Origin: Artemia franciscana
Lineage: Eukaryota; Arthropoda; Branchiopoda; Anostraca; Artemiidae
Direction: 5' to 3'
Length of the DNA: 64,000 nucleotides
Assembly: GCF_032884065.1 (NCBI RefSeq)
Contig: NC_088873.1
Coordinates: forward strand, 8,753,702 to 8,817,701
In this document: one piece after another, positions 14,677-62,192 of the stretch
Numbering within the stretch: position 1 is the first letter of the stretch
Layout: each line of letters begins with the position of its first letter
Translations under genes and position numbers: made by a program
The notes under the pieces: generated by a model
Database searches by the model: none
What the model was told of the DNA's origin: nothing
What the model saw: only the letters and a program-made list of their open reading frames with translations

Positions 14677-14724
14677 TCTATATATATAAAAATAAGTTGT
14701 CTGTCTGTCTGTGGATGGATGGAT

Positions 14725-14740
14725 CAGGTGACGTCACCTG
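14725..14740. promoter_or_regulatory. 16-bp CRE-like palindrome at Helitron 5' end
   Basis: CAGGTGACGTCACCTG is a perfect palindrome containing TGACGTCA (the CREB/ATF consensus) inside E-box-like CAGGTG/CACCTG arms. It recurs at 15575-15590 and 57900-57915. A second GGTGACGTCA follows within 30 bases. A role in transcription is inference only. Confidence 0.6.
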
Positions 14741-14744
14741 AAAA

Positions 14745-16440
14745 AACTGGATCAGGTGACGTCAAAACTGAAAAAACTAAAAAAAGGCAAAAACTACAAA
14801 TAAAACTAAAAACTAATAAAAAAAATAAAAAAGCTAAAAAACTAAAAAAACTAAAAAAAGGCAAAAACTACAAAAAAAACTAAAAACTAATAAAAAAGCT
14901 AAAAAACTAAAAAAACTAAAAAAAGGCAAAAACTACAAAAAAAAACTAAAAACTAATAAAAAAAATTAAAAAAGCTAAAAAACTAAAAAAACTAAAAAAA
15001 CTAAAAAAAGGTAAAAAACTAAAAAAAACTAAAAACTAAAAAAAACTAAAAAAAAAGGAAAAAACTGAAAAATAAGCTAAAATAAAGGTAAAAACCAATA
15101 AAAAACTAAAAAAAAAACTGAAAAAACTAAAAAAAGGCAAAAACTACAAAAAAAAACTAAAAACTAATAAAAAAAGTAAAAAAGCTAAAAAACTAAAAAA
15201 ACTAAAAAAAACTAAAAAAAGGTAAAAAACTAAAAAAAAAAAAAAATAAAAAAAAAACTAAAAAAAAGGAAAAAACTGAAAAATAAGCTAAAATAAAGGT
15301 AAAAACCAATAAAAAACTAAAAAGAAAAAAAGGAAAAAACTAAAAAAAATTTTCATCTAAAAAACTAAAAAAGGTAAAAACTAAAAGAACTAAAAAAGAA
15401 AAAAATAAATGACGAAACTCAAAGAGAAAGCGACCAGGACAAAAGGAATGTTCGATTAGCAATCAACAAAGCACCGGGACACAGGGAGTATAAATGACGA
15501 CCAGGACATAAGTAAAAAAAAAAACTATCTATATATATAAAAATAAGTTGTCTCTGGATCTGTGGATCGTGGATCAGGTGACGTCACCTGAAAAACTGGA
15601 TCAGGTGACGTCAAAACTGAAAAAACTAAAAAAAGGCAAAAACTACAAAAAAAACTAAAAACTAATAAAAAAGCTAAAAAACTAAAAAAACTAAAAAAAA
15701 GGCAAAAACTACAAAAAAAACTAAAAACTAATAAAAAAAATAAAAAAATAAAAAACTAAAAAAACTAAAAAAACTAAAAAAAGGTAAAAAACTAAAAAAA
15801 CTAAAAACTAAAAAAAACTAAAAAAAAGGAAAAAACTGAAAAATAAGCTAAAATAAAGGTAAAAACCAATAAAAAACTAAAAAAAAAACTGAAAAAACTA
15901 AAAAAAGGCAAAAACTACAAAAAAACTAAAAACTAATAAAAAAAGTAAAAAAGCTAAAAAACTAAAAAAACTAAAAAAACTAAAAAAAGGTAAAAAACTA
16001 AAAAAAATAAAAAATAAAAAAAAACTAAAAAAAAGGAAAAAACTGAAAAATAAGCTAACATAAAGGTAAAAACCAATAAAAAACTAAAAAGAAAAAAAGG
16101 AAAAAACTAAAAAAAAATTTCATCTAAAAAACTAAAAAAAACTAAAAAAGGTAAAAACTAAAAGAACTAAAAAAGAAAAAAATAAATGACGACACTCAAA
16201 GAGAAAGCGACCAGGACAAAAGGAATGTTCGATTAGCAATCAACAAAGCACCGGGACACAGGGAGTATAAATGACGACCAGGACATAAGTAAAAAAAAAA
16301 TTAACAAAACTAAAAAGAAGGTAAAAACTACAAAAAAACTAAAAAGAAAAAAAAACTAAAAACTAATAAAAAAACTAAAAAATCTAAATAAACTAAAAAA
16401 GAAAAAAAAAGGAAAAAAATAAAGGAGAAAAACAAAACTA
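14745..16440 (+). repeat. A-run array (AAAAACTA / AAAAAGGTA units)
   Basis: Nearly continuous runs of five to eight A's separated by CTA, GCTA, GGTA or GGCA spacers, centre-to-centre about 8-10 bases. Larger blocks recur after the second 5' end at 15528. Strand asymmetry is extreme: the + strand has almost no T outside the spacers. Apparent open frames here on either strand are artefacts of the low-complexity sequence. Confidence 0.9.
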
Positions 16441-16863
16441 AAAAACGAATGTATATACAGACCGGTACACCGGGATACAAATGACGACCGGGACACAGGG
16501 AATATAAATGACGACCGGGACACAGGGACACAACTACAACGGGGACACCGGGGGAAACAGGGGGATATAAATGACGACCGGGACAAAAAAACTAAAAAGA
16601 AAAAAAAACTAAAAACTAATAAAAAAACTAAAAAATCTAAAAATCTAAATAAGCTAAAAAAGAAAAAAAAAGGAAAAAAATAAAGGAGAAAAACAAAACT
16701 AAAAAACGAATGTATATACAGACCGGGACACCGGGATACAAATGACGACCGGGACACAGGGAATATAAATGACGACCGGGACACAGGGACACAACTACAA
16801 CGGGGACACCGGGGGAAACAGGGGGATGTAAATGACAACCGGGACACCGGGACAGGGAATGGT

Positions 16864-17057
16864 CGATTAGCAATCACCATCAACAAAGCTCAAGGGCAAT
16901 CATTAGAATCATGAGGTATAGATCTGAATACAGATTGTTTTCCCATGGACCATTATATGTTGCATATTCAAGAGTCGGTAAACCTGACATTCTATTTATA
17001 TACAAAGACAATGGGACAGCAAAGAATGTTGTATATTCGCAAGTTTTACGTAGTTAA
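16864..17057 (+). pseudogene. Helitron helicase C-terminus, remnant
   Basis: RLAITINKAQGQSLES is followed by a TGA, a broken middle, and VACSRVGKPD in another frame, ending at TAA 17055-17057. It is the same motif V/VI remnant as at 3715. It lies between minisatellite blocks and the element's (TA)n tract. Confidence 0.8.

Positions 17058-17061
<4 letters not shown>

Positions 17062-17146
<85 letters not shown>
17062..17146. repeat. (TA)n microsatellite inside Helitron copy 2
   Basis: About 85 bases of uninterrupted TA dinucleotides between the helicase remnant and the 3' terminal region. Confidence 0.95.
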
Positions 17147-17147
<1 letters not shown>

Positions 17148-17240
17148 ATCTATATTCACAGGTGGGACATAGGGACACAACTACAATGGCGCGTAACTAT
17201 TATGGCGCGTAACGACTTACGCGCGCGGGGGGGCTTGGGG

Positions 17241-17432
<192 letters not shown>

Positions 17433-24839: not shown

Positions 24840-24862
24840 GTGATTTTCTTTTTCGAATTCAT

Positions 24863-25043
24863 CATAATTGCTTTGCTTTTTAAGTCCTCATAATTGCTTT
24901 CTATTTCTAAATCGTCATAATTGCTTTATTTTTTTAAGTCGTCATAATTGCTCTCCTTTTTTAAGTCGTCATAATTGCTTCTTTTTTTTAAGTCGTCATA
25001 ATTGATTTTCCTTTTTAAGTTGTAATAATTGCTTCCTTTTTTT
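24863..25043. repeat. Minisatellite, about seven copies of a 27-bp unit
   Basis: The core cataattgctt recurs every 26-28 bases with a T-rich spacer and AAGTCGT, starting only 24 bases after the exon D donor. Confidence 0.9.
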
Positions 25044-27225
25044 ATAAAAGGACTGTGACGTTTTAGCGCCTTACTTTCCCCTCTCCTTGCGCCTGCGCAA
25101 TCACCATGCGCCTTACTTTCCCCTCTCCTTTCGGGTGATAGGCTAGCTTATAAAGTGTTTTCATAAACATTCGAAATTCCGAAGCTGAGGCTAAACCTGT
25201 TCTTGTGGACTTTATCTGCTGGTCTTTATACTGACTTGAATTACTTACAAGGTGTTTTCGTTTGGGGATTAAAAGGGCAAAGTCCAAGGCCTAAGAAATT
25301 GAAAAATACAACAGCAATACCTTTTTAAGCACAATTCTCTTGAGCTAAAAGAAAAAGACAACTATTGTTTAGTCTTCAACTGGGCTGGGGATTCATAGGC
25401 CAAACTTCAAGGTCTCAAAGATGGAAAGTAGAAGGATTGAAAGAAACTTCGGGGTCAGTCTGTACTCTTTAATGAGGGTGATCAATTCAGTAATGTTGTT
25501 CACGTGATCTGACATTTTAGATTTTGGCCGATTCCTTCAAAACCAACGAGTAACTAGAGTTTTTCTGGTGTATCGTTGATTTTCGCCGAATAATTTTTCC
25601 TTTTAGACACAGCATTAGGTCTGAAAATTTGCCAAATTTAGAATTAAGAAGTATTTTCGTGTATGTTCTTTTTTCTGTCTTCAGTGGTTTGTGGTCAAGA
25701 TGCCTCCCGGACATAAGGGGGGATGAGATGTAATCTTAAATTACACTGGTGTGAACTCGTGATTGTATGTTCTCACGTATTGCCGAAATATTTAAATTCC
25801 ACCCATTGAACTAATACTATAGAAAAAAATGAGAAGTAGGTGGTCTACTCTCGTGGCGATTCTCCAGATCGCTCATGCTATGCGTTAAATCCATTTGCGT
25901 TATCGTGAGTGTTGAAGGTGATAAAAGCTGGAAAGTTCACACAACACGACTACTACGTGATATGGAAGATTAAACTCGCTTCCTAAGCAAACTTGATAGA
26001 ATTCTTTAATGGCTGCAAGATAGCATATGTGATTTTTCGTTTTGTATTTCTTGATACTTTCTTATAAAATTCATATTTTATCAAATAATCGTTAAAAAAA
26101 TGTTTCAGACTTTGGTCTGTGTTTCCCCCGTGTTTTGTGAAAATGCCTTGTAAGCAATTCAAGTCAGTCTAAAGACCAGCAGATGAAGTCCTCATGAACA
26201 GCTTTAGCCCTATTGAAATTTACCATCAGCACTAGAGCCATAGTGGAATATTTGTGAAAACGCCCTATAAGCAAGTCTGTCAACTTGCAAGGGGGTGTAG
26301 GGAGAGGCTTAGACGTATGCTAAAACCTCAATAATGACTATCTGTTTGGTAAAATTTGGTCCGATTGCAGAAAACAGTAACATTTTGTCCGATTACAGAT
26401 AAAACAATGACACTTAGTCCGATGACAAATAAAAACCGTGCCACTTTTTCGATTGTGATAAAAATCAGTGGTTATTTGTCCAATAGCAAATAAAAACTAT
26501 GGCAGTTTGTCCGGTGACAAAGAAAAACAGTGATAGTTTATCTTATGACAAGAAAAACAATCAAAGTTTACCCGATGACAAGGAAAAACAATGGCAGTTT
26601 ATCCGATGACACGTTGTCCTATGACAGTCTTGGTAATGACAGAAAAATGCATGTTAAAAAACGATGACCGAATTATTTTATGGAAAAATGTTGTTGAACC
26701 CTAGAGAAAAGGTTGTAAGTTATGCAATGTGCCCATTGTTTACATAAAGAATTTATCATTGGATAATGTATCATTGGAGGGAATGTTGAATGTTTGATCC
26801 TGAGTGTGTCAGAAAAGGCTAAGGGCAATAAGGTAAAACTTCAGGAATACTGAGGGGATGTTGAGGTCAATCAAAAGGTAGTATTTACATCTCGGTTGTC
26901 AGAAGTGTATATCCTAGGAATGGTTAATGGCATTTGGTCGTAACTTCTAGGGGATATTGAAATGAGTTAAAGAACGCTAATTAGAACTAACAAACTAGAA
27001 TTGGATGTTTCGATTCTTGCGCTGGAGACATGAAAAACTTATGTTCACCAAATAACAAAACTTTGGCAAACAAACACGAACAGAAATTACCAAAAAAAAG
27101 AATTTCCGAAAAAGAAGTTTTTTCCATTAAACTTAAAACCAGTAGAAATAAATTTATATTGTAATTCACACTCAAATTGGCCACACTCAAAAATGGGCAA
27201 CGTGAGGTGCTGCGGCAACGTTTGT
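25044..27225 (+). other. Non-coding sequence, no exon seen
   Basis: Contains a two-copy GCGCCTTACTTTCCCCTCTC repeat at 25068-25131 and the minisatellite at 26345. No exon continuing the coiled-coil gene could be recognised. Confidence 0.5.
26345..26640. repeat. Diverged minisatellite, about 36-40-bp unit
   Basis: The motif tttgtccgatgacaaa (variants tttatccgatgac, cttagtccgatgac) recurs about eight times, separated by AAAAACAATGGCAG-like text. The copies are about 70-85% alike by eye. Confidence 0.8.
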
Positions 27226-33314: not shown

Positions 33315-34751
33315 GTAACTGAGCCCCTTCGCTGAGTGAATTATGCTTTTTCTTTCTATTGATAAATAAAGATTTGGTAGTTTTGGCTGACAAATGACTT
33401 TTTTAATCCCGTGTTTTCGGATGCAACGCGTTTTTCGTCAGTTGTGGTTCTAGGCCTAAGCAGGGGGTGCAGCTGCCCCTCTTCCCCAGTTTTTCTGACA
33501 TAGTTTTTCTCAAATAATTTTGATTAATGGACGTGTTTACACTCATGCCCGAAATTTGATTTTAATTTTGACATAAATTTGATTTTAACTTAGAAGTTAA
33601 CATATATCGTTGATACTTGCCTCCTTGGTTTAGGTCCTCACCTTAATTGTACTTACTCCTATGTCAGGGGTATATTTAGGAATTTGTGTTGGGTGAATGA
33701 GGAGGAGCAAATAGTTAATTAAAGCACCAGAATTTGGTAAATAGCTTGGAATAACTTTGTAAAAATAGTTGTAAACAGCTGAAAACTTCTGTCCAGAAAA
33801 CCAACTATATAAATATTTCCAAAAGGATGAAGGCCCTGTGTTTTCAGTTCTTCTCTTTTTGGTACTGCAATGCTTTCTACGTCGGAATGCCAATGCTTTC
33901 AACGTATGTATCCAAATGGCAAGTAAATGTTATTTATTTTTTTCGGTGAATTTCAGGCAATGAGTTGGCGTTTCCATCTAAAGCATCAAGGCCCTAGCCT
34001 TGTGTTTTTTTCTGATCTCTGATTCTGTTGCTCTGACATGCTTAATAAGCTTTGTTTACATTCCGTCTATTCTATTAAGGGGTAGCGGTGACATCTTTTT
34101 CGTAGTATTCCCGAGAGTAGTAAAAACAAATAGTAGCTGACCTACTATTGCTAATTTAAGTCACCGTTCTTATGTATTTAAGCTACTACTGGCTTTCAAA
34201 ATCATCGACGGGGGGTGAATCCCCCTGGATATCCGACTCGCCGACTCGGTGCAAGAAAAGATCCAAAGTAGAGCAATCTGAGGTGGAGGAAAAAATTTCT
34301 CTTTGTAAGACTAGTTTTGAGGATTAATTTCTGCTTGTCGTAATGGCTGGCAAGTGGTGGGTAACTCTCTCTTCCAGCGTTGCCTGCTCTAGTCGGTCTG
34401 AAGATGGCAGCTGGGGCTCTCAGGATCGAGGAAAACAATGGAAGAGACCTTGATATCGCCAAGTGAGGCACTTCTGTAAAGGAAAAAAAGGATTGGCAAA
34501 CCCTATATCAAATTACAACACACAGGAGGGAAGACCCCGTCGTGGCTACTAATTCAATAATGAAATCAATTTCCACTTATTGGGCTCAGTTTGTCTTCCC
34601 GTACCCTCTATCTATAAAAAATACTCGAAAATTCTTTATATTGGCATTTTTAATTTCTGAATTGAATTCCTTTAATTTATTTTTTGTACGTGCGTCATTA
34701 TTCGTAAACACTCCAAATATATAAGTGAAGAGAAAGATTATTGTGTGATTT
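33315..34751 (+). other. Neuroguidin intron 1, first part
   Basis: No exon or transposon ORF recognised; AT-rich unique-looking sequence. Confidence 0.5.
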
Positions 34752-35019
34752 ATTGAGGTCCACAGTATTGTACAGCACTGCTTGCTTCACAAGATGGTGC
34801 TTCAGCATTGAAAGAGGTATTGAGGTCCACAGTAATATACAGCACTGCTTGCTTCACAAGATGGTGCTTCAGCATTGAAAGAGGTATTGAGGTCCACAGT
34901 ATTGTACAGCACTGCTTGCTTCACAAGATGGTGCTTCAGCATTGAAAGAGGTATTGAGGTCCACAGTATTGTACAGCACTGCTTGCTTCACAAGATGGTG
35001 CTTCAGCATTGAAAGAGGT
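34752..35019. repeat. Four near-identical copies of a 67-bp tandem repeat
   Basis: Copies start at 34752, 34819, 34886 and 34953, each opening attgaggtccacagtattgt and closing gcattgaaagaggt. Only copy 2 differs noticeably (aatata for attgta). 67 is not a multiple of three and no long frame spans it, so it is non-coding. The high identity points to recent expansion, or to an assembly copy number that could be off. Confidence 0.95.
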
Positions 35020-36657
35020 ATTAGCAAATAATCTAAAGATCAAGAATTATAGTTGACAATCTCTTTTTTGAAAGTTTGAATGTTGAATCCAATTTTTTGA
35101 CAATTTCTATGTTATTTTATGATGATATCATTATCATCCTAGGATTCTTTACCTTGAAAATTTACAAAAAAAGTTAAGCATTGTATTTTTGTCTCGCATT
35201 CGTAGATTAAATGGGCATACTGCAGAACTTGTGTCTTATTTCAAGGAACTTCAGGGAGACAAAATCACTTTCCGAGCAAGCTTCTTTTGGTATTTTGAAG
35301 GAAGTAGGTATGCTGGGTCAATAAATCATCAGTTCAAAGATCAAACTCTGAAAGTTTCATTTATTTAAAACTTAAGTTCTTTAAGTTTGAAAAAATAATT
35401 TTTTCAAACTTAAAGAACTTACTATTTATTAAAAAAATTGCAAAACATAATCGCAAAGCTGCAATTTGTCAAAATTATTGGGTGCGAGTATTAAAGCTAT
35501 GATTGGTTTTATGTGTAAGCTATGAAGGTTTTTCAAATATTTAATAAATAACAAATAATTAGGTAATTTATGTTTAGTGTGTTGCGTTTTTTTTTTTTTT
35601 TTTTTTTTAGATTAATTTGATGCTGTAGGTTCAAGCTGCCTTAGGCTATCACAGCTACGCACGTCAATATTCTATCTCAATCTATTTAAAGCCTTCTTCT
35701 TTACTAGCTCCTAATAAGTTCCAATTTCCCTTTAATCCTTCCTTACGACATCCTCCCATTGTCTGCATTACTTTGAACGACAAAAATATGGTAAGATTGG
35801 TGGCTTCAGCAATAACAATGGCATTCCTATCGTCTTGAAAATTGGATTTCTATACTCTACTACTTTCCTTGTACTATACTTTTACTGAACTTTTCCTTTT
35901 ACTATACTTTTTATATATTACTATTTTAGAGCTAAGCGAATGAAATTTTAATTAAAAGAGTTTAAAAATTCATTCCTGGGGATTCATTCTTCTGGGAGAC
36001 TTTAGAGCAACGCAGCTATTTGCAAAATTAAGAGCGGTATTTTAACGTTACTGCATATAACCTTAAGCACGGCAAGTTATGAGGCTGGGGAAGGGGGCCC
36101 CCTCTGAAAAAATGCAAAAGGCAAAATGTTTTAAAATTCGGGAAGGATTTTCCGGGACTTTCTTAGGTTTTGCCTCTCGTAGCAAAGTTGTTGTTTTCTT
36201 ACCCCCTTTTTTAGAACATTTCTATGAGCACCTATGGTCTCATATGTCTAGTGTTAGAAAATCTAGAAATCCAAGACCGGGGATAAATTACTAACCCTTT
36301 TTTTTCTTTTTTTTTGCATAGCGTTTCCTTGATAGATTTAACCTGTCTTCAGTTATGGCGGTTTTAGTCGAAATTAAATGTACAAATCTGGAGACTATGG
36401 ATCTTGTCTCTTGGATTACAAACCTTTTGTATAGAATCTTCATCATCGTCAGCCATTATAGTGGCAAAGAATATAATAAGCTTAAAATGTAAGCCTTTTT
36501 CAATGACATTCTGGTAAGAAATTGAAATTCATCAGAAGGACTCCTTCACAAACAAGTTTTGGCTTAAAAATATATAGAAATAATACAAAGAAAAGAAATT
36601 GTCAGTGTTTTTAGCCTTTTAATTTTTATTTCTTATTTATCGAATATATTGTTTTAG
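35020..36657 (+). other. Neuroguidin intron 1, second part
   Basis: No supportable exon. A 35-bp inverted repeat of aagttctttaagtttgaaaa type lies near 35372-35420, and a T-run at 35588-35609. Confidence 0.5.
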
Positions 36658-40760: not shown

Positions 40761-43700
40761 GATTGCCCTACAGATAGGTAGAGTAGCTCCATAGGAGGCT
40801 TAGACCAAGTAGGACCTTGTCCCAGTGGGGTCCATAATAGAAACTGGGAAACCCTCCCCTGGGGGTCATAATTACAGGTGGAGGAGGAAGAAGCCCCCTC
40901 AAATGTACACTCAACATGGCCCACTGCCGTGTTCACACGTCAGATGAGTTACAAACCTTCTCCCAGTAATGGGTTTAATTGCATGGTGAAGCAGAACACC
41001 ATCGTGGGAGGATCCTCTATAGCAGGACAACTGCGGCAGGGCGTAAGATCCAGATTTATGGACAACGGCCTCTGTAAAGGGCTGCCTCGACCCTTTCGGG
41101 GTACCCGCAAGACTGGGAAACTTGCGGTCAATTTTTCCCACTTGAGGAGTGGCGCCCCTCGAGGAAATTATAGCCTAGTAAACAACACAGCACTCGTACG
41201 GGATTCTGATTATTGGATATTTTTCTGGGCTTGGTTTGTTTTGATGGGCGTTTTCGGGCTGAAAAACCTCTTCCTAGCTAATTTATCTACTATGGACTGC
41301 CTTCCCGTAGTAGCATAATATTTGTAGGCATGAATATATAATGAGTCGGAGGTAATAGGCTTGGGACTGTCTGTTCAGGATTTTGACTCTTGTTGATAGA
41401 GGAGCATCGCCAAGTGCTGAAAACCATGTTATGACCAAGATGGGCCCAGGATTGCACAAAGCCTCCAAATTACTGGAGGTCCCAGGGACTTCTTGCTGTC
41501 CGGTTCTAAGCCGGCTTAAGCGCTTCGGTGTAGACTTGAGAAGATATGTTGGTCCCCATCCTGCACTGGTATCCGGGATCACTGCTTTTCTTGAGGCCAA
41601 AATAATTTTAAAGATTTAAAGAACATGAAAATTGGAACTTGGAATGTTACGATGTTAAAAAATGAATATCGCATCGACATTTTGACTGACGAATTCAGAC
41701 GGTTTGAACTGGATTTATTAGGAGTTTCAGAAACTCACATCCCAGGGATAGGAAGCATGAAATTAGGTGACATAGAATTTGTTTACTCAGGCAGGAAGGA
41801 TGGGGTACATAGACAGGGAGTAGGGCTCATGATGAATAAGGAAGCTGCTAAGTCTTGTTTAGGCTGGGAAGGTATTAATAATAGAATACTAATTGCTCAT
41901 TTTATGACTAAAAAGTTTAGGGTATCAGTTATAGTAGTATATGCCCCCATTGAACCAACTGATGGAGATACTAGTGACTCAGATGAATTTTACTTACAGT
42001 TACAGGAACAAATGGACAGGGTACCAGGTAGAAATATGGTGTTTTTGCTAGGAGATTTTAATGCCCAGGTTGGTAGAAATAGGGATAGATGGTATCCTAG
42101 CCTAGGTAAATTTGGTGTAGGAAAAGAAAACAGTAATGGCTATAGGCTTTTGCAATTTTGTAGGTATAACAACCTAGTTATAACCAATACGGTGTTTGGT
42201 CACAAAATGACCCATAAGTTGACATGGTATTCACGTGATGGTAAGACAGCAAACCTTATTGATTATGTTATTGTAAACAGAAGACTGGCAGGATCAATAC
42301 AAGATACTAGGGTGTATAGGAGTGCCGTTATTGATGTTAAAAGTAAAGATCACCATCTAGTAGTGTCTAAGGTTAATTTAAAGCTGAAATTTCGGAAGGG
42401 TAACTCCCTCCCGGAAAGTTATGATGTTGGTAGACTTCAGGATGAAAATTTGAGAAAAAAAATTTCAGGAACAGTTGAGTACTAAACTTGAGAGTTTAAA
42501 ATTTGACAATGTGGAAGATGGATGGAATAATTTCAGAAAAACAATTTGTGAAGTTGCTGATGGTGTCCTAGGGAAGAGTGCTAAGACTGCAACTAGGAAT
42601 ATTAGTGAAAAAGCTTTAGGTTTAATAGAGAGTAGACGGGGTTTGTATAAGAATTATCTGAGTGATAGGTCGTATGAAAACAAAAGGAATGTAAAGAAAG
42701 TGGAGAAAGCATTAAAATATGAACTAAGGAGATGTGAAGTGGAGGCGATGGATAAAATTGCTGAGGATCTGGAAGATGCGGCTAGACGGCATAATAGTAA
42801 AATATTATACTGGCATGTTAATAAATTGAAAGGGAGTAGCCAATCCGGACTAGTCCCAGTTAAAGATAGAAATGGGGCCACAATTAGTGATAAGGAAAAA
42901 ATTAAAGAAAGATGGGTGGAACATTTTGAGAATGTGCTAAACCGAGATACAGTTGCAGGAAAAGATATAGATGAAAATGAAAAAGTTTGTGATACCTTGG
43001 ATGTGAAGGAAGATTTTTTTAGTGAGGAAGAATTAGCGACAGTACTAAAAGGATTAAAAAATAATAAGGCCTCAGGTGCTGATAGTATGATTAATGAGTT
43101 TCTTAAATATGGTGGCTCTGAGGTTAGGAATAAGCTAAAGAAGATTATGAACATGATTTTTGAAAAAAGGGCAAGTACCCAATGATTTTAGGAAAACCTT
43201 AATTAAACCACTGTATAAGAAAGGTGACAAGAGTGAGTGTCGTAATTATCGAGGCATTAGTCTGGTCTCTGTAGGTAGCAAATTACTGAGTAATATGATA
43301 CTTTTTAGACTGAGACATGCTGTAGACAAAGTTTTAAGGGAAGAACAATGCGGTTTTAGAAAAGGTAGAGGATGTGTTGACCATGTTTTCACTCTTAGGT
43401 TAATAATTGAGAAGTCCCTTCGTTGTCAAACACCTTTGGTCCTCAGTTTTATCGATTATGAGCAAGCTTTCGATCCTGTTGATAGAACAGCGTTAACAAA
43501 GGTCTTGTCGTTATATGGTATACCTGAAAAATACATTAAAGTGATTTGCACTATGTACGAGAATAATACTGCTGCCGTTAAGGTAGGAAATGAGGTTAGC
43601 AACTGGTTTTGTATTAAATCAGGAGTTAAGCAGGGTTGTGTTCTATCCCCCTTTATATGGATCATTTTGATGGACTTCATCTTAAGGAGCACAGGAAAGG

Positions 43701-44574
43701 CAATTGGAGACCATGGAATCAAATGGGGAGGAAGAACGCTCCTGGACTTAGATTATGCTGATGATTTAAGCATATTAGATGAAAGTGCGAGCAAAATGAA
43801 TGAATTTTTAGAGGGTTTTACAAGTTCAGGGTGCTAAAATAGACTTGAAAATTAATGTTAAGAAGACTAAGTCACTAAGGCTAGGAATAAGTGAAGATGA
43901 ACAGGTGACATTAGGTAACGATAAGATTGATCAGGTTGGGAGCTTCAGTTATCTTGGTAGTATTATTAGTAAAGATGGTGGGAGCAGTGAAGATGTTAAA
44001 AGTAGAATAGCTAAGGCCCAGGGTGTTTTTTCACAGTTAAAAAAAGTTTGGAAGAATAGAACGATAAGTCTAGAAACCAAGATTAGAATATTGGAAGCTA
44101 CAGTGATGACAGTGGTCAAATATGACTCTGAAGCATGGGCACTCTGAAAAGCAGATGAAAATTTACTAGATGTTTTCCAGAGAAATTGCCTACGGATTGT
44201 TCTGGGTACCCGGCTGACTGACCGTATTTCAAACAGTAGGTTGTACGAAAAGTGTGGTTCAATCCCACTTTCTGGGGCTATAATGAAAGAAAGGTTGAGA
44301 TGGCTAGGCCACGTTCTACGGATGAAGGATGACAGATTACCGAAGATTGTCCTTTTTGGCCAACCGTCTGGGGCTACACGGAAGGCAGGTCGTCCTTGTC
44401 TGGGTTGGGAGGATGTCATAAATAAAGATTTAAAGGAAATGGCAACTTCCTGGGAGGGTGTAAAGAGGGAGGCTTTAAATAGATTAGGTTGGAGGAGGAG
44501 CGTGCGTAGCTGTGTTGGCCTCAAGCGGCTTGGTGCTGCATTGAGTTATTAGTAGTAGTAGTAGTAGTATGTTA
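40740..44574 (+). mobile_element. APE-type LINE, near full length, inactive
   Basis: A 5' region of about 880 bp precedes one large ORF; a (TAG)n tail ends at about 44568. The GC content and codon use of the 5' region (40850-41600) differ from the AT-rich surroundings. The ORF has apurinic-type endonuclease then reverse transcriptase. Clade: the IDYEQAFD..GVKQGCVLSP..LDYADD pattern and simple-triplet tail suggest an RTE-like or related lineage, not certain. The 5' boundary is approximate, and no target-site duplication could be fixed. It lies in sense orientation within neuroguidin intron 2. Confidence 0.85.
41625..44552 (+). pseudogene. LINE endonuclease-reverse transcriptase ORF, broken
   Basis: ATG 41625 starts MKIGTWNVTML, an APE endonuclease: SETHI, VVYAPIEP, LGDFNAQVG, IDYVIVNRR and SKDHHLVV supply the catalytic N, E, Y, D/N and DH residues. 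The RT follows: LIKPLYKKGD, YRGISLVS, FRKGRGCVDHV, IDYEQAFD, GVKQGCVLSP, LDYADDLSIL. The C-terminus has FSYLGSIIS and LRWLGHVLRMKDDRLPK. It is disrupted by a frameshift in the A-run near 42455, another in the A-run near 43165, a third near 43810, and an in-frame TGA at 44145-44147 (probably from CGA). All catalytic motifs survive, so the copy died recently. The breaks at homopolymers could partly be sequencing errors. Confidence 0.93.
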
Positions 44575-52658: not shown

Positions 52659-53601
52659 CTAGCTGTTGGTGCCAACACCTAGATGGAGGGGGCGCTTCGC
52701 CCAACCCACCCAAGCCCCCCGCGCGCGTAAGTCATTACGGGCCATTGTAGTTGTGTCCCTGTGTCCCACCTGTGAATATAGATAGTTCTTTTCCATTTTC
52801 TCTACCACTCCATATTAATCAAGTATCAATAATTCAATCTGTATTAATATGTTTTTATTTTATGATTGCCATTGAGCTGTGTTTTTTCTTTTTTCTCTTT
52901 GTTTCTCTTTTATTTTTCATTTTTTTCACTTTTTTCTTTTTTTCAGTTTTTTCTTTTTTCTTTTTTTAGCTTTTCTTTTTTAGTTTTTTTCTTTTTACCC
53001 TTTTCTGTTTTAGTTATTTTTTAGTTTTTCTTTCTTTAGTTTTTTAGTTTTTACTTTTTTTTTCTTTTTTTAAGTTTTTATTTTCTTTTTTGGTTTTTTC
53101 TTTTTTAGTTTTTTCTTTTTTTAGTTTCGTATATGCAAACCCTCAAACATACAAAAAACAAACCTGCATACAACTTATTTTTTTATATATATCTAGTTTC
53201 TCTTTTAGTTTTGTCTTTTTTAGTTTTTTCTTTATCTTAGTTTTTTTTTCTTTTTTAGTTTTTCTTTTTTTTTAGTTTCTTCTTTTTATTAAATTGTTTT
53301 CTTTTTTAGTTTTTTCTTCTTTTTCTAGTTTTATTGTTTTAGTTTTTATCTTTTTTTCTTTTAAATTTTTATTTTTTTCTTTTTTTCTTTTTTTCTTTTT
53401 AGTTTTTTTTCTTTTTTTGGTTTTGTCTTTTTTTCTAGTTTTTCTTTTTTTTAGTTTTTTTCTGTTTTTTATTTATTTTTTTTATTTTTTTTTTATTTTT
53501 TTAGTTTTCTTTTTCTTCTTTATTTTTCAGACGTCATATGCAAACCCTCAAACAAAAATACATACATACAACTTATTTATATATATATATATATATATAT
53601 A
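52659..53601 (-). mobile_element. Degenerate Helitron (copy 3, minus strand)
   Basis: Read on the minus strand, the 3' end is at 52659-52662 (CTAG). The hairpin is reduced to TGTTGGTGCCAACA (52665-52678), having lost the GC-rich middle of the stem. The family's GC-rich and CACCTGTGAATATAG text follows, then a T-rich (antisense A-run) array with two CATATGCAAACCCTCAAAC units, up to a minus-strand 5' end near 53575-53600. It abuts, head to head, the + strand 5' end at 53602. No helicase remnant. Confidence 0.75.
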
Positions 53602-53651
53602 TCTATATATATAAAAATAAGTTGTCTGTGTGTGGATCTGTGGATGGATCA

Positions 53652-56600
53652 GGTGACGTCATGTTTGTTCGCATATGACGTCTGAATTATTTCAAACTAA
53701 TAAAAAAGAAGAAAAAAACTAAAAAAGGTAAAAACTACAAAAAAAACTAAAAAGAAAAAAACTAAAAAAGCTAAAAAACTAAAAAAAAACTAAAAAAAGG
53801 TAAAAATCTAATAACTAAAAAAAACTGAAAAAAATAAAAAAAGGCAAAAACTACGAAAAAAATAAAAACTAATAAAAAAACTAAAAAAGCTAAAAAACTA
53901 AAAAAAACTAAAAAAAACTAAAAAAAGGTAAAAAACTAAAAAAAACTAAAAACTAAAAAAGAAAAAAACTAAAAAAAAGGAAAAAACTGAAAAATAAAAG
54001 AGAAAAAGAAAACTAAAAAAATATGAATAAATATATATAAAAATAAGTTGTTTGTGGGTTATGTCTGTCTATCTGTCTGTCGAGTGACGTCGTGTTTGTC
54101 CGCATATGACGTCTGAATTATTTCACACTAATACAAAAGAAGAAAAAAAACTAAAAAAGGTAAAAACTACAAAAAAAACTAAAAAGAAAAAAAACTAAAA
54201 AAGCTAAAAAACTAAAAAAAACTAAAAAAAGGTAAAAAACTAAAAACTAAAAAAAACTGAAAAAACTAAAAAAAGGCAAAAACTAAAAAAAAAACTAAAA
54301 ACTAATAAAAAAACTAAAAAAGCTAAAAAACTAAAAAAACTAAAAAAAGGTAAAAAACAAAAAAAAAACTAAAAACTAAAAAAGAAAAAACTAAAAAAAA
54401 GGAAAAAACTGAAAAATAAGAGAAAAAGAAAACTAAAAAAATATTAATAAATATAAAAAATATAAATATAAATACGGATCAGGTGACGTCATGTTTGTTC
54501 GCATATGACGTCTGAATTATTTCACACTAATACAAAAGAAGAAAAAAACTAAAAAAGGTAAAAACTACAAAAAAACTAAAAAGAAAAAAAAAACTAAAAA
54601 AGCTAAAAAACTAAAAAAAAACTAAAAAAAAGGTAAAAATCTAATAACTAAAAAAAAAACTGAAAAAAATAAAAAAAAGGCAAAATCTACAAAAAAAATA
54701 AAAACTAATAAAAAAACTAAAAAAGCTAAAAAACTAAAAAAACTTAAAAAAACTAAAAAAAGGTAAAAAACTAAAAAAAAACTAAAAACTAAAAAAGAAA
54801 AAAACTAAAAAAAAGGAAAAAACTGAAAAATAAAAGAGAAAAAGAAAACTAAAAAAATATGAATAAATATATATAAAAATAAGTTGTTTGTGGGTTATGT
54901 CTGTCTGTCTGTCTGTCGAGTGACGTCGTGTTTGTCCGCATATGACGTCTGAATTATTTCACACTAATACAAAAGAAGAAAAAAAACTAAAAAAGGTAAA
55001 AACTACAAAAAAAACTAAAAAGAAAAAAAACTAAAAAAGCTAAAAAACTAAAAAAAACTAAAAAAAATTAAAAAACTAAAAACTAAAAAAAACTGAAAAA
55101 ACTAAAAAAAGGCAAAAACTAAAAAAAAACTAAAAACTAATAAAAAAACTAAAAAAGCTAAAAAACTAAAAAAACTAAAAAAACTAAAAAAAGGTAAAAA
55201 ACAAAAAAAACTAAAAACTAAAAAAGAAAAAACTAAAAAAAAGGAAAAAACTGAAAAATAAGAGAAAAAGAAAACTAAAAAAATATTAAGGTGACGTCAT
55301 GTTTGTTCGCATATGACGTCTGAATTATTTCACACTAATACAAAAGAAAAAAACTAAAAAAGGTAAAAACTACAAAAAAAACTAAAAAGAAAAAAAAAAC
55401 TAAAAAAGCTAAAAAACTAAAAAAAACTAAAAAAAGGTAAAAATCTAATAACTAAAAAAAAACTGAAAAAAATAAAAAAAGGCAAAAACTACAAAAAAAA
55501 ATAAAAACTAATAAAAAAACTAAAAAAGCTAAAAAACTAAAAAAACTAAAAAAAACTAAAAAAAGGTAAAAAACTAAAAAAAACTAAAAACTAAAAAAGA
55601 AAAAAACTAAAAAAAAGGAAAAAACTGAAAAATAAAAGAGAAAAAGAAAACTAAAAAAAATATGAATAAATATATATAAAAATAAGTTGTTTGTGGGTTA
55701 TGTCTGTCTGTCTGTCTGTCGAGTGACGTCGTGTTTGTCCGCATATGACGTCTGAATTATTTCACACTAATACAAAAGAAGAAAAAAAAACTAAAAAAGG
55801 TAAAAACTACAAAAAAAAACTAAAAAGAAAAAAAAACTAAAAAAGCTAAAAAACTAAAAAAAACTAAAAAAAGGTAAAAAACTAAAAACTAAAAAAAACT
55901 GAAAAAACTAAAAAAAGGCAAAAACTAAAAAAAAACTAAAAACTAATAAAAAAACTAAAAAAGCTAAAAAACTAAAAAAACTAAAAGAACTAAAAAAAGG
56001 TAAAAAACAAAAAAAAACTAAAAACTAAAAAAGAAAAAACTAAAAAAAAGGAAAAAACTGAAAAATAAGAGAAAAAGAAAACTAAAAAAATATTAATAAA
56101 TATAAAAAATATAAATATAAATACGGATCAGGTGACGTCATGTTTGTTCGCATATGACGTCTGAATTATTTCACACTAATACAAAAGAAGAAAAAAACTA
56201 AAAAGAAAAAAAAACTAAAAAAGCTAAAAAACTAAAAAAAAACTAAAAAAAGGTAAAAATCTAATAACTAAAAAAAAACTGAAAAAAATAAAAAAAGGCA
56301 AAAACTACAAAAAAAATAAAAACTAATAAAAAAACTAAAAAAGCTAAAAAACTAAAAAAAACTAAAAAAAGGTAAAAAACTAAAAAAAACTAAAAACTAA
56401 AAAAGAAAAAAACTAAAAAAAAGGAAAAAACTGAAAAATAAAAGAGAAAAAGAAAACTAAAAAAATATGAATAAATATATATAAAAATAAGTTGTTTGTG
56501 GGTTATGTCTGTCTGTCTGTCTGTCGAGTGACGTCGTGTTTGTCCGCATATGACGTCTGAATTATTTCACACTAATACAAAAGAAGAAAAAAAACTAAAA

Positions 56601-56920
56601 AAGGTAAAAACTACAAAAAAAACTAAAAAGAAAAAAAACTAAAAAAGCTAAAAAACTAAAAAAAACTAAAAAAAGGTAAAAAACTAAAAACTAAAAAAAC
56701 TGAAAAAACTAAAAAAAACTAAAAACTAATAAAAAAACTAAAAAAGCTAAAAAACTAAAAAAACTAAAAAAACTAAAAAAAGGTAAAAAACAAAAAAAAA
56801 CTAAAAACTAAAAAAGAAAAAACTAAAAAAAAGGAAAAAACTGAAAAATAAGAGAAAAAGAAAACTAAAAAAATATTAATAAATATAAAAAATATAAATA
56901 TAAATATAATATAAATTAGC
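53652..56920 (+). repeat. Higher-order tandem array of two alternating subunits (about 0.8 kb per pair, four rounds)
   Basis: Subunit A is marked by GGTGACGTCATGTTTGTTCG at 53652, 54482, 55290 and 56131. Subunit B is marked by CGAGTGACGTCGTGTTTGTC at 54081, 54917, 55720 and 56525. They strictly alternate with spacing 373-435 bp. Each B is preceded by a (GTCT)n tract and the Helitron 5' text ATATATATAAAAATAAG without the initial TC. Between markers run A-tract arrays. Successive rounds are highly similar. Confidence 0.92.
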
Positions 56921-57404
56921 AATCAACAAAGCACCGAGACACAAATGACGACCGGGACACAGGGAGTATAAATGACGACCAGGACATAAGTAAAAAAAAA
57001 ACTAAAAAAACTAAAAAAATGGTAAAAACTACAAAAAAACTAAAAACTAATAAAAAAACTAAAAAATCTAAAAATCTAAATAAACTAAAAAAGAAAAAAA
57101 AGAAAAAAGGAAAAACTAAAAACACAGGGAATATAAATGACGACCGGGACACAGGGACACAACTACATTGGGGACGCCGGGGGGCACAGGGGGATATAAA
57201 TGACGACCGGGACACCGGGACACAAGGAATATAAATGACGCCCGGGACACTCAAAGAGAAATCACAGACTGGAACACCGGGACACAAATGACAACCGGGA
57301 CACAGGGAATATAAATGACGACCGGGACACAGGGACATAACTACAAAGGGGACGCCGGGGTGCACAGGGGGATATATAAATGACGATGGCGACTCAGGGA
57401 ATGG

Positions 57405-57599
57405 TCGATTAGCAATCACCATCAACAAAGCTCAAGGGCAATCATTAGAATCATGAGGTATAGATCTGAATACGGATTGTTTTCCCATGGACCATTATAT
57501 GTTGCATGTTCAAGAGTCGGTAAACCTGACAATCTATTTATATGCACAGACAATGGGACAGCAAAGAATGTTGTATATTCGCAAGTTTTACGTAGTTAA
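57405..57599 (+). pseudogene. Helitron helicase C-terminus, remnant
   Basis: The RLAITINKAQGQSLES region, then a TGA and a frame break, then VACSRVGKPDNLFI to TAA at 57597-57599. It is nearly identical to the minus-strand copy at 60618-60811. Confidence 0.8.

Positions 57600-57602: not shown

Positions 57603-57671
<69 letters not shown>
57603..57671. repeat. (TA)n microsatellite at an orientation switch
   Basis: About 68 bases of TA repeats. Helitron text runs + on the left and − on the right of it. Confidence 0.95.
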
Positions 57672-57672
<1 letters not shown>

Positions 57673-57673
<1 letters not shown>

Positions 57674-57835
57674 TAGCTGTTGGGGTGGCGCTTCGCGCCA
57701 CCCCAACACCTAGTTGGTGGGGGCGCTTCGCGCCCCCCCCCAAGCCCCCCCGCGCGCGTAAGTCGTTACGCGCCATATTAGTTACGCGCCATTGTAGTTG
57801 TGTCCCTATGTCCCACCTGTGAATATAGATATATA
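57673..57835 (-). mobile_element. Isolated reversed Helitron 3' terminal segment
   Basis: On the minus strand it ends with CTAG at 57673-57676 and the perfect hairpin at 57680-57706. The inner hairpin/CTAG module and the family 3' text back to CACCTGTGAATATAGATA follow. It is the reverse complement of 60370-60528, but stops where the next + strand 5' end begins at 57836. Confidence 0.85.
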
Positions 57836-60527
57836 TCTATATATATAAAAATAAGTTGTCTGTCTGTGGATGTGTGGATGGATGTGTGGATGGATGTGTC
57901 AGGTGACGTCACCTGAAAAAACTGGATTAGGTGACGTCAAAACTGAAAAAACTAAAAAAAGGCAAAAACTACAAAAAAAACTAAAAACTAATAAAAAAAA
58001 TAAAAAAGCTAAAAAACTAAAAAAACTATAAAGGTAAAAACCAATAAAAAACTAAAAAAAAAAAACTGAAAAAACTAAAAAAAGGCAAAAACTACAAAAA
58101 AAAACTAAAAACTAATAAAAAAAGTAAAAAAGCTAAAAAACTAAAAAAACTAAAAAAACTAAAAAAAGGTAAAAAACTAAAAAAAATAAAAAATAAAAAA
58201 AAACTAAAAAAAAGGAAAAAACTGAAAAATAAGCTAAAATAAAGGTAAAAACCAATAAAAAACTAAAAAAAAAAAGGAAAAAAACTAATAAATGACGACA
58301 CTCAAAGAGAAAGCGACCAGGACAAAAAACTAAAAAAAAAGGCAAAAACTACAAAAAAACTAAAAACTAATAAAAAAAATAAAAAAGCTAAAAAACTAAA
58401 AAAACTAAAAAAAGGTAAAAAACTAAAAAAACTAAAAACTAAAAAAAAACTAAAAAAGGTAAAAACTAAAAGAACTAAAAAAGAAAAAAATAAATGACGA
58501 CACTCAAAGAGAAAGCGACCAGGACAAAAGGAATGTTCGATTAGCAATCAACAAAGCACCGGGACACAGGGAGTATAAATGACGACCAGGACACAAGTAA
58601 AAAAAAAAATTAACAAAACTAAAAAGAAGGTAAAAACTACAAAAAACTAAAAAGAAAAAAAAACTAAAAACTAATAAAAAAACTAAAAAATCTAAAAATC
58701 TAAATAAACTAAAAAAGAAAAAAAAAGGAAAAAAATAAAGGAGAAAAACAAAACTAAAAAACGAATGTATATACAGACCGGTACACCGGGATACAAATGA
58801 CGACCGGGACACAGGGGAATATAAATAACGACCGGGACACAGGGACACAACTACAACGGGGACACCGGGGGAAACAGGGGGATATAAATGACGACCGGGA
58901 CAAAAAAACTAAAAAGAAATAAAAACTAAAAACTAATAAAAAAAACTAAAAAATCTAAAAATCTAAATAAGCTAAAAAAGAAAAAAAAAAGGAAAAAAAT
59001 AAAGGAGAAAAACAAAACTAAAAAACGAATGTATATACAGACCGGGACACCGGGATACAAATGATGACCGGGACCCGGGACACAGGGAATATAAATGACG
59101 ACCGGGACACAGGGACACAACTACAACGGGGACACCGGGGGAAACAGGGGGATAACCTGACAATCTATTTATATGCAAAGACAATGGGACAGCAAAGAAT
59201 GTTGTATATTCGCAAGTTTTACGTAGTTAAAACCATATATATATATATATATCTATATTCACAGGTGGGACATAGGGACACAACTACAATGGCGCGTAAC
59301 TATTATGGCGCGTAACGACTTACGCGCGCGGGGGGGGCTTGGGGGGGGCGCGAAGCTAAAATAAAGGTAAAAACCAATAAAAAACTAAAAAAAAAAGGAA
59401 AAAAACTAATAAATGACGACACTCAAAGAGAAAGCGACCAGGACAAAAAACTAAAAAAAAAGGCAAAAACTACAAAAAAAACTAAAAACTAATAAAAAAA
59501 ATAAAAAGCTAAAAAACTAAAAAAACTAAAAAAAGGTAAAAAACTAAAAAAACTAAAAACTAAAAAAAAACTAAAAAAGGTAAAAACTAAAAGAACTAAA
59601 AAAGAAAAAAATAAATGACGACACTCAAAGAGAAAGCGACCAGGACAAAAGGAATGTTCGATTAGCAATCAACAAAGCACCGGGACACAGGGAGTATAAA
59701 TGACGACCAGGACACAAGTAAAAAAAAAAATTAACAAAACTAAAAAGAAGGTAAAAACTACAAAAAAACTAAAAAGAAAAAAAAAACTAAAAACTAATAA
59801 AAAAACTAAAAAATCTAAAAATCTAAATAAACTAAAAAAGAAAAAAAAAAGGAAAAAAATAAAGGAGAAAAACAAAACTAAAAAACGAATGTATATACAG
59901 ACCGGTACACCGGGATACAAATGACGACCGGGACACAGGGAATATAAATAACGACCGGGACACAGGGACACAACTACAACGGGGACACCAGGGGAAACAG
60001 GGGGATATAAATGACGACCGGGACAAAAAACTAAAAAGAAATAAAAACTAAAAACTAATAAAAAAAACTAAAAAATCTAAAAATCTAAATAAGCTAAAAA
60101 AGAAAAAAAAAGGAAAAAAATAAAGGAGAAAAACAAAACTAAAAAACGAATGTATATACAGACCGGGACACCGGATACAAATGATGACCGGGACCCGGGA
60201 CACAGGGAATATAAATGACGACCGGGACACAGGGACACAACTACAACGGGGACACCGGGGGAAACAGGGGGATAACCTGACAATCTATTTATATGCAAAG
60301 ACAATGGGACAGCAAAGAATGTTGTATATTCGCAAGTTTTACGTAGTTAAAACCATATATATATATATATATCTATATTCACAGGTGGGACATAGGGACA
60401 CAACTACAATGGCGCGTAACTATTATGGCGCGTAACGACTTACGCGCGCGGGGGGGGCTTGGGGGGGGCGCGAAGCGCCCCCACCAACTAGGTGTTGGGG
60501 TGGCGCGAAGCGCCACCCCAACAGCTA

Positions 60528-60528
<1 letters not shown>
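57836..60528 (+). mobile_element. Helitron (copy 5) with both termini and internal 1.12-kb duplication
   Basis: 5' TC at 57836 follows an A; 3' CTAG at 60525-60528 is followed by T, with hairpin 60495-60521. The 5' end carries the CRE-like palindrome at 57900. The interior has A-run arrays, minisatellites, and two truncated helicase ends (from NLTIYLYAKTMGQ text at 59157 and 60276) that lack motif V. Non-autonomous. The near-identical internal duplicates imply recent rearrangement or an assembly error. Confidence 0.88.
58233..60474 (+). repeat. 1.12-kb near-perfect tandem duplication
   Basis: The block 58233-59354 is repeated at 59355-60474. At the junction, the 3' terminal GC-rich text gcgcgaagc runs directly into gctaaaataaaggtaaaaac, so the breakpoint used the shared AAGCT/AAGC microhomology. 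An 84-codon stretch (59061-59315 and 60181-60435) is identical in both copies at the protein level. Confidence 0.93.
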
Positions 60529-60616
<88 letters not shown>

Positions 60617-62092
60617 TTTAACTACGTAAAACTTGCGAATATACAACATTCTTTGCTGTCCCATTGTCTGTGCATATAAATAGATTGTCAGGTTTACCGA
60701 CTCTTGAACATGCAACATATAATGGTTCATGGGAAAACAATCCGTATTCAGATCTATACCTCATGATTCTAATGATTGCCCTTGAGCTTTGTTGATGGTG
60801 ATTGCTAATCGACCATTCCCTGAGTCGCCATCGTCATTTATATATCCCCCTGTGCACCCCGGCGTCCCCTTTGTAGTTATGTCCCTGTGTCCCGGTCGTC
60901 ATTTATATTCCCTGTGTCCCGGTCGTCATTTGTGTCCCGGTGTTCCAGTCTGTGATTTCTCTTTGAGTGTCCCGGGCGTCATTTATATTCCTTGTGTCCC
61001 GGTGTCCCGGTCGTCATTTATATCCCCCTGTGCCCCCCGGCGTCCCCATTGTAGTTGTGTCCCTGTGTCCCGGTCGTCATTTATATTCCCTGTGTCCCGG
61101 TCGTCATTTGTATCCCGGTGTCCCGGTCTGTATATACATTCGTTTTTTAGTTTTGTTTTTCTCCTTTATTTTTTTTCCTTTTATCTTTTTTTTCTTTTTT
61201 AGTTTATTTAGATTTTTAGATTTTTTAGTTTTTTTATTAGTTTTTAGTTTTTTGTAGTTTTTACCATTTTTTTAGTTTTTTTAGTTTTTTTTTTTACTTA
61301 TGTCCTGGTCGTCATTTATACTCCCTGTGTCCCGGTCGTCATTTGTGTCTCGGTGCTTTGTTGATTGCTAATTTATATTATATTTATATTTATATTTTTT
61401 ATATTTATTAATATTTTTTTAGTTTTCTTTTTCTCTTATTTTTCAGTTTTTTCCTTTTTTTTAGTTTTTTCTTTTTTAGTTTTTAGTTTTTTTTTTGTTT
61501 TTTACCTTTTTTTAGTTTTTTTAGTTTTTTTAGTTTTTTAGCTTTTTTATTTTTTTTGTAGTTTTTACCTTTTTTAGTTTTTTTTCTTCTTTTGTATCAG
61601 TGTGAAATAATTCAGACGTCATATGCGGACAAACACGACGTCACTCGACAGACAGACAGACAGACATAACCCACAAACAACTTATTTTTATATATATTTA
61701 TTCATATTTTTTTAGTTTTCTTTTTCTCTTTTATTTTTCAGTTTTTTTCCTTTTTTTTAGTTTTTTTCTTTTTTAGTTTTTAGTTTTTTTTTAGTTTTTT
61801 TACCTTTTTTTAGTTTTTTTTAGTTTTTTTAGTTTTTTAGCTTTTTTAGTTTTTTTTATTAGTTTTTATTTTTTTGTAGTTTTTGCCTTTTTTTATTTTT
61901 TTCAGTTTTTTTTTAGTTATTAGATTTTTACCTTTTTTTAGTTTTTTTTAGTTTTTTAGCTTTTTTAGTTTTTTTTTCTTTTTAGTTTTTTTTGTAGTTT
62001 TTACCTTTTTTAGTTTTTTTCTTCTTTTGTATTAGTGTGAAATAATTCAGACGTCATATGCGGACAAACATGACGTCACCTGATCCATCCAC
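60529..62092 (-). mobile_element. Helitron (copy 6, minus strand), 5' part lost in the gap
   Basis: From left to right: a (TA)n tract to 60613, the helicase C-terminus reversed, minisatellites reversed (60830-61140 and 61305-61350), T-rich arrays, one B-type marker reversed near 61625 and one A-type marker near 62054, 430 bp apart as in copy 4. It then enters the N gap. It mirrors the right half of copy 4, with small differences. Confidence 0.82.
60618..60811 (-). pseudogene. Helitron helicase C-terminus, remnant (minus strand)
   Basis: The reverse complement gives the INKAQGQSLES motif and VACSRVGKPD as at 57405, with the same internal break. TAA reads at 60618-60620. Confidence 0.8.
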
Positions 62093-62192
62093 NNNNNNNN
62101 NNNNNNNNNNNNNNNNNNNNNNNNNNNNNNNNNNNNNNNNNNNNNNNNNNNNNNNNNNNNNNNNNNNNNNNNNNNNNNNNNNNNNNNNNNNN
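62093..62192. other. Assembly gap (100 N)
   Basis: Exactly 100 N inside Helitron 5' sequence. The right arm of the inverted cluster is therefore incomplete, and its true length is unknown. Confidence 1.

What the first reader, a model, noticed from the sequence alone, without database searches (positions are those of the whole stretch)
53652..56920. Satellite-like higher-order repeat built from Helitron 5' ends
Two subunit types, A (GGTGACGTCATG) and B (CGAGTGACGTCGTG), alternate strictly four times with a pair period of about 0.80-0.84 kb, as in centromeric higher-order repeats, yet each carries Helitron 5' terminal text. This looks like a transposon end turning into a satellite array by dimer-wise amplification, possibly through rolling-circle replication that fails to terminate.
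Basis: partly seen in the sequence, partly recalled or inferred. Interest (0 to 1): 0.7.

Follow-up and report, generated by a model that had tools for sequence, protein, structure and literature searches.

The report
Fourfold repeat inside a mobile element
A common jumping gene (a Helitron) in this genome, probably an animal's, has at this place its ordinary two-part front half repeated four times in a row; it looks like a local copying accident inside a transposon rather than a new satellite DNA, so it is largely ordinary.

Summary
A and B units alternate strictly four times at 53652-56905 (A-A spacing 830, 808, 841) and fall on two sides of a 100/100 branch. The satellite reading is not supported. 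The window's own genome (1.27 Gb) holds at least 6,637 A-cores. Of 20 sampled single places, 18 have one A followed by one B, 1 has A-B-B, 1 has A alone; three places set aside as pairs have two dimers. So A+B is the usual front half of a dispersed, non-autonomous Helitron family. The junction that repeats the dimer here (J2) was found twice in the genome, both in this array, so the amplification looks private and local. A wider pattern found 30 other B-to-A junctions; all keep some Helitron 5'-terminal text, 9 of them the full terminus with TC, as 5'-end joining or self-insertion would give. J2 lacks the first 44 nt, which argues against rolling-circle re-initiation for this array. Multi-5' Helitrons, Helitron-borne repeats and head-to-tail Helitrons are published. 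Verdict: new member of a known kind, low interest.

The parts
53602..53651 (+). Helitron 5' terminus (TCTATATATATAAAAATAAGTTG...) of element E3; the only TC terminus in the array
53652..54080 (+). unit A1
54081..54481 (+). unit B1, ends in junction J2 (AAATACGGATCAGG)
54482..54916 (+). unit A2 (lacks the first 44 nt of the element)
54917..55289 (+). unit B2; its join to A3 lacks 34 nt relative to J2
55290..55719 (+). unit A3
55720..56130 (+). unit B3, ends in J2
56131..56524 (+). unit A4 (private deletions)
56525..56905 (+). unit B4, runs into the ordinary element tail
56906..57599 (+). tail of E3 with frame-broken C-terminal helicase remnant
57673..57835 (-). Helitron 3' end (hairpin + CTAG) lying inverted after the (AT)n that follows E3; no 3' end in E3's own orientation was seen between its tail and the next element's 5' end at 57836
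52659..53610 (-). E6m: diverged element with two 5'-type units (74% alike), head-to-head with E3; 3' CTAG at 52662-52659, 5' border not exact because it lies in (TA)n
60613..62092 (-). E5m: ordinary copy of the same family with one A-B dimer (B shortened inside); 5' part cut by the N gap
14677..17307 (+). E2: related element with two 5' ends (second exactly at TC, 15528) and one 3' hairpin CTAG
57836..60529 (+). E4: related element with a separate 1.12-kb internal tandem duplication (99% identical)

Best explanation
E3 is a copy of a young, high-copy, non-autonomous Helitron family whose usual body is 5' TC - unit A - unit B - tail with helicase remnant - 3' hairpin CTAG. In this copy the A-B front half was duplicated by a join of B's AT-rich end to a point 44 nt inside the 5' end (J2, with one added C), and the dimer was then amplified to four copies, most simply by unequal exchange or replication slippage between 0.8-kb repeats. 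Shown: the body plan in the sampled copies, the alternation, and that J2 was found only here. Inferred: the joining and expansion mechanism, and 'young' (from about 1% divergence between loci).
For: A is followed by B in 8 of 8 loci and in 19 of 20 (one of the 19 is A-B-B; 7 of these 20 are the same places as). J2 was found in 2 places at up to 2 mismatches in 1.27 Gb, both inside this array. Two of three B-to-A joins here are identical J2, and the third is the same text less 34 nt. J2 carries none of the element's first 44 nt. Dimers carry private indels. E4 next door shows a separate tandem duplication whose break lies in the 3' hairpin text rather than at a transposon end, with AAGC shared by both parents (the shared letters read by eye).
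Against: A-B segments differ by only about 1% between loci (mean 0.99%, n=1206 pairs) and by 0.65% between neighbouring dimers of the array (n=3), so high identity does not itself prove recent local duplication. All 30 other B-to-A joins found keep 5'-terminal text, so a different mechanism here is less economical than one altered join. J2 contains AATACGGAT, also found in the helicase remnants of E1, E3 and E5m, which could be a relic of a collapsed head-to-tail concatemer. No reads were available.
Confidence: 0.7

Rival explanations
1. Rolling-circle replication lost or passed the 3' terminator and laid down tandem truncated elements (the model that the review PMC12628747 ascribes to Xiong et al. 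2016), giving many 5' ends and one 3' end.
For: 30 of 30 other B-to-A junctions found keep 5'-terminal text, 9 with the full terminus and TC and 4 lacking one nt; E2 repeats exactly at TC.
Against: In this array 0 of 7 internal units begin at TC and the three B-to-A joins lack 44 nt or more. The AT-rich B end is also a natural insertion target (inference), so self-insertion explains the other junctions as well.
Confidence: 0.12
2. Self-insertion of a second copy into the AT-rich end of B of a resident copy made a two-dimer composite (as proposed for Fusarium Helitrons, PMC5148889), followed by deletion around the join and local expansion.
For: 21 different B-to-A junction strings occur among the 30 outside the array, 13 of the 30 junctions at TC or one nt from it; tandem dimers elsewhere differ by 0.69% (n=8) and dimers of different loci by 0.99% (n=1206), no clear sign that tandem dimers are direct copies of each other.
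Against: J2 retains more of the B end than the other 30 junctions (38 letters against 15-28) and none of the 5' terminus; it needs an extra deletion.
Confidence: 0.13
3. The four dimers are an assembly artefact.
For: A 100-N gap lies nearby at 62093 and the sequence is highly repetitive.
Against: No N inside the array; dimers carry private indels of up to 34 nt.
Confidence: 0.05

Closest known systems
Helitrons with multiple 5' termini and a single 3' terminus (Fusarium FoHelis, PMC5148889; passages seen)
   Same: several 5' ends precede one tail
   Different: there the repeated 5' text is typically under 200 bp; here each unit is about 0.4 kb, two types form a dimer, and the 3' end lies inverted
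Tandem arrays of truncated Helitrons in plant centromeres (Xiong et al. 2016, not read; seen only as described in passages of PMC12628747)
   Same: repeated 5' parts
   Different: those arrays range from several to several hundred repeats; here four dimers, J2 at one place, and unit borders not at the 5' terminus
Non-autonomous Helentrons with central satellite-like repeats (Cg_HINE, PMC7492417, abstract and first part of discussion; DINE-1, PMC4067079, passages)
   Same: short arrays carried by rolling-circle transposons
   Different: in Cg_HINE the repeats are central, 140-180 bp on average, and a regular part of the elements; here the repeat is the 5' half
Head-to-tail Helitrons with a CTAG/TC junction (maize, PMC2267711; passages seen)
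   Same: the G/T junction, found 1,214 times in this genome; some neighbours unlike each other
   Different: concerns the family, not the array itself

Membership tests
canonical Helitron (non-autonomous) | 5' terminus TC | tested here: met
   TCTATATATATAAAAATAAG at 53602, 14677, 15528, 57836
canonical Helitron (non-autonomous) | 3' CTRR preceded by a hairpin | tested here: met
   for the family: hairpin before CTAG at 17307, 60529 and in the inverted end at 57673 (z -9.9, -10.2, -9.1), weaker in E6m (-3.2); E3 itself has the 3' end only inverted
canonical Helitron (non-autonomous) | inserts between A and T without target duplication | tested here: inconclusive
   3' ends seen are followed by T, but many flanks are (TA)n or another copy, so borders are ambiguous; no empty site was compared
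canonical Helitron (non-autonomous) | relationship to a RepHel protein | tested here: inconclusive
   a 29-aa remnant of E1 aligns with Helraiser residues 1423-1444 at E=1, the only PDB match at E up to 10; the 39-aa piece of E3 had none in Pfam or PDB
satellite DNA / centromeric higher-order repeat | multi-monomer unit repeated head to tail | tested here: met
   A-B dimer x 4
satellite DNA / centromeric higher-order repeat | long arrays, or the same array at several loci | tested here: not met
   J2 in 2 places, both here; no run with more joins, which sees only joins of 30-60 nt with exact anchors in assembled sequence
rolling-circle tandem array of truncated Helitrons | each unit starts at the 5' terminus (my reading of the model) | tested here: not met
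   0 of 7 internal units start with TC; J2 lacks the first 44 nt

The most novel reading that the evidence does not exclude
J2 is the scar of a collapsed head-to-tail Helitron concatemer: B end joined to AATACGGAT of the helicase remnant and then to GGATCAGG of the next copy, through 4-nt microhomologies (AATA, GGAT; read by eye). The array would then be a rolling-circle concatemer trimmed to its front halves, a stage between transposon and satellite. AATACGGAT occurs 5 times in the window, twice in J2 and three times in helicase remnants, against 0.44 expected, but only one letter of J2 really needs the third source.
Probability: 0.12. Interest if true: 0.45.

Novelty: new member of a known kind. 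Interest (0 to 1): 0.22.

Why it matters
It gives a clean case of a first step by which a transposon could seed a tandem array, with the founding junction readable and, in this assembly, found at one locus only, and it warns that alternation of two unit types need not mean a satellite. The family itself (thousands of similar copies, over a thousand end-to-end junctions, dozens of 5'-end joins) would be a good natural data set for testing how multi-5' Helitrons form.

Tried and rejected
Satellite reading: not borne out by the genome searches. E5m as a special sister of E3: first thought so because the tails match (7 mismatches in 698 aligned positions, some at alignment gaps), dropped when 18 of 42 other loci matched E3's tail at 99% or better. 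1-2-4 doubling of the array: BLAST of D1-D2 against D3-D4 suggested it, but pairwise counts did not (D3-D4 closest). Head-to-tail pairs as rolling-circle concatemers: neighbours were not clearly more alike (mean 89.4%, n=11) than non-neighbours (86.5%, n=238). The 11 come from 23 junctions with up to 30 nt between the ends; the rest had no downstream 3' end in the locus or no alignment of 150 nt; six loci nested in longer ones were left out. Only 5 of the 11 are exact CTAG|TC (89.8, 87.5, 75.2, 96.0 and 82.1%). Divergence as a test of duplication against self-insertion: inconclusive (alignments under 400 nt dropped, 16 nested loci skipped; one of the 8 tandem pairs, L038, has unrelated DNA between its dimers). 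Exact pattern searches of viral contigs and genome contigs found nothing. Protein searches of the remnant gave nothing firm. Counts of all 3' ends and of B-cores were asked for but did not complete, so the 1,214 junctions have no denominator.

Full report
Observation. The array is present as described. A 24-base core occurs eight times on the plus strand between 53670 and 56568, and the heads alternate A, B, A, B, A, B, A, B; 100 shuffled windows gave no match. Spacing is 803-841 bp between like heads. A maximum-likelihood tree of the eight units plus the two units of a neighbouring minus-strand copy (E5m) puts all five A and all five B on opposite sides of a 100/100 branch (bootstrap values rough). 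With homopolymer runs collapsed, A2, A3, A4 and the minus-strand A show no substitutions between each other, and neither do B1 to B4; A1 differs from the other A units by 6-7, and the minus-strand B, which has lost an internal part, by 0-5 from the other B units; A and B differ by 3-15, with 7-11 gaps. The A-rich body is slippery, so small counts should not be over-read.

Anatomy. The array sits in a Helitron copy (E3) that starts at TCTATATATATAAAAATAAGTTG (53602). Only A1 follows that terminus. Each B is preceded by TATATATAAAAATAAGTTG without TC. A2 and A4 follow junction J2 (AAATACGGATCAGG), which lacks the first 44 nt of the element, and A3 follows the same join less 34 nt. After B4 comes the ordinary tail with a broken C-terminal helicase remnant. 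No 3' end in E3's own orientation was seen before the next element; a 3' hairpin end lies inverted at 57673-57835. Family 3' ends fold into a strong hairpin directly before CTAG. Three neighbours are related: E2 has two 5' ends, the second exactly at TC; E6m is a diverged element with two 5'-type units; E4 has its own 1.12-kb internal tandem duplication at 99% identity.

The genome. The window lies at C11:8753702-8817701 of a 1.27-Gb assembly. The A-core with up to three mismatches occurs 6,637 times (3,287 plus 3,350; a lower bound), control zero. The eight loci returned with that search all have A followed by B, with the A-to-B junction of this window exact in 7 of 8. I then took the first 20 single places with an exact A-core on contig C1, in list order; 7 of them are the same places as, and two places with a second exact A-core within 1 kb were passed over. 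Of the 20, 18 have one A-B, one has A-B-B (L030) and one has A alone (L034); in L038 a neighbouring copy holds two more dimers with unrelated DNA between them. The two passed-over places and a third on C1 (L011, L012, L013), with A-cores 855-874 bp apart, hold two dimers each, with B-to-A joins at or within a few nt of the Helitron 5' terminus and not J2. The sample is limited to copies with an exact A-core. So the alternation reflects the usual body plan of a dispersed family, and two-dimer copies also exist elsewhere. A-B segments from different loci differ by 0.99% on average, and 18 of 42 other loci match E3's tail at 99% or better.

The repeat junction. J2 with up to two mismatches was found twice in the genome, both in this array. 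A wider pattern for a B end followed 30-60 nt later by an A head, with exact anchors, finds 32 places, control zero. Two are J2. The other 30 all keep some Helitron 5'-terminal text (9-22 of 22 nt); 9 keep all 22 with TC, 4 lack one base, 17 are trimmed or changed further in; 21 different junction strings occur among them, and some repeats on small contigs may be haplotype copies. Only this array and one contig (C1846, 2.6 kb apart, not inspected) have two such junctions within 3 kb. The array is therefore the longest A-B run that I saw. The pattern cannot see joins outside its range (the B2-A3 join here is one), and a collapsed assembly could hide longer arrays.

Mechanism. For this array the simplest account is a local duplication of the A-B half by a non-homologous join, then expansion between the 0.8-kb repeats. 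Re-initiation of rolling-circle replication should place unit borders at TC; here none of the seven internal units starts there. Elsewhere in the family, joins at or near the terminus are the rule among those found; they fit self-insertion into the AT-rich end of B, proposed for Fusarium Helitrons with several 5' termini (PMC5148889, passages), or the loss-of-terminator model for plant centromeric arrays (as described in PMC12628747, passages; the original paper was not read). Divergence between tandem dimers (0.69%, n=8) and unlinked dimers (0.99%, n=1206) does not separate the two. The motif AATACGGAT shared by J2 and the helicase remnants leaves open that J2 is the scar of a collapsed concatemer.

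Head-to-tail copies. The junction CTAG|TC between family members occurs 1,214 times with up to three mismatches, control zero. In 11 usable pairs (5 with exact CTAG|TC, 6 with a few nt more or less) the neighbours were on average 89.4% alike, against 86.5% for 238 non-neighbour comparisons. This small sample gives no sign that neighbours are copies of each other as a rule, and points to independent insertions; some pairs (in L016, L017, L026, L038) are 94-97% alike and might be concatemers. A maize paper described one such G/T junction between unlike Helitrons and discussed both models (PMC2267711, passages); Helraiser makes circles with the same join (PMC4778049, passages).

Known or new. Short arrays inside rolling-circle transposons are well known (PMC7492417, abstract and first part of the discussion; PMC4067079, passages). 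What is specific here is the dimer of two 5'-type units and a non-terminal junction found at one locus. I rate it a new member of a known kind.

Noticed in passing
whole genome; e.g. L022 near 3447, L011 near 1053, L034 near 3511, L038 minus strand: 1,214 CTAG|TC head-to-tail junctions (up to 3 mismatches) between Helitron family members; in the few pairs compared, neighbours are often clearly unlike each other.
   Followed up: partly
L026:139-2100: Two head-to-tail repeats of about 979 bp with the same CTATATATC junction, the third start cut by an N gap: a candidate true Helitron concatemer.
   Followed up: partly
58231-60476: 1.12-kb tandem duplication inside Helitron E4, 99% identical, break inside the 3' hairpin text with shared AAGC (by eye).
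   Followed up: partly
57604-57835 and 60371-60613: A helicase remnant is followed by (AT)n and then a Helitron 3' end in the opposite orientation, on both sides of E4, making a large inverted arrangement of E3 and E5m.
   Followed up: partly
34751-35022: 67-bp tandem repeat, 4.1 copies, 98% matches, outside the Helitron copies.
   Followed up: no
24845-25044: 27-bp tandem repeat, 7.4 copies.
   Followed up: no
9030-10997: 655-codon open frame with a Zc3h12a-like NYN ribonuclease domain (Pfam PF11977, E 2.9e-25).
   Followed up: partly
41595-43837: LINE-type retrotransposon pieces: endonuclease and reverse transcriptase domains.
   Followed up: partly
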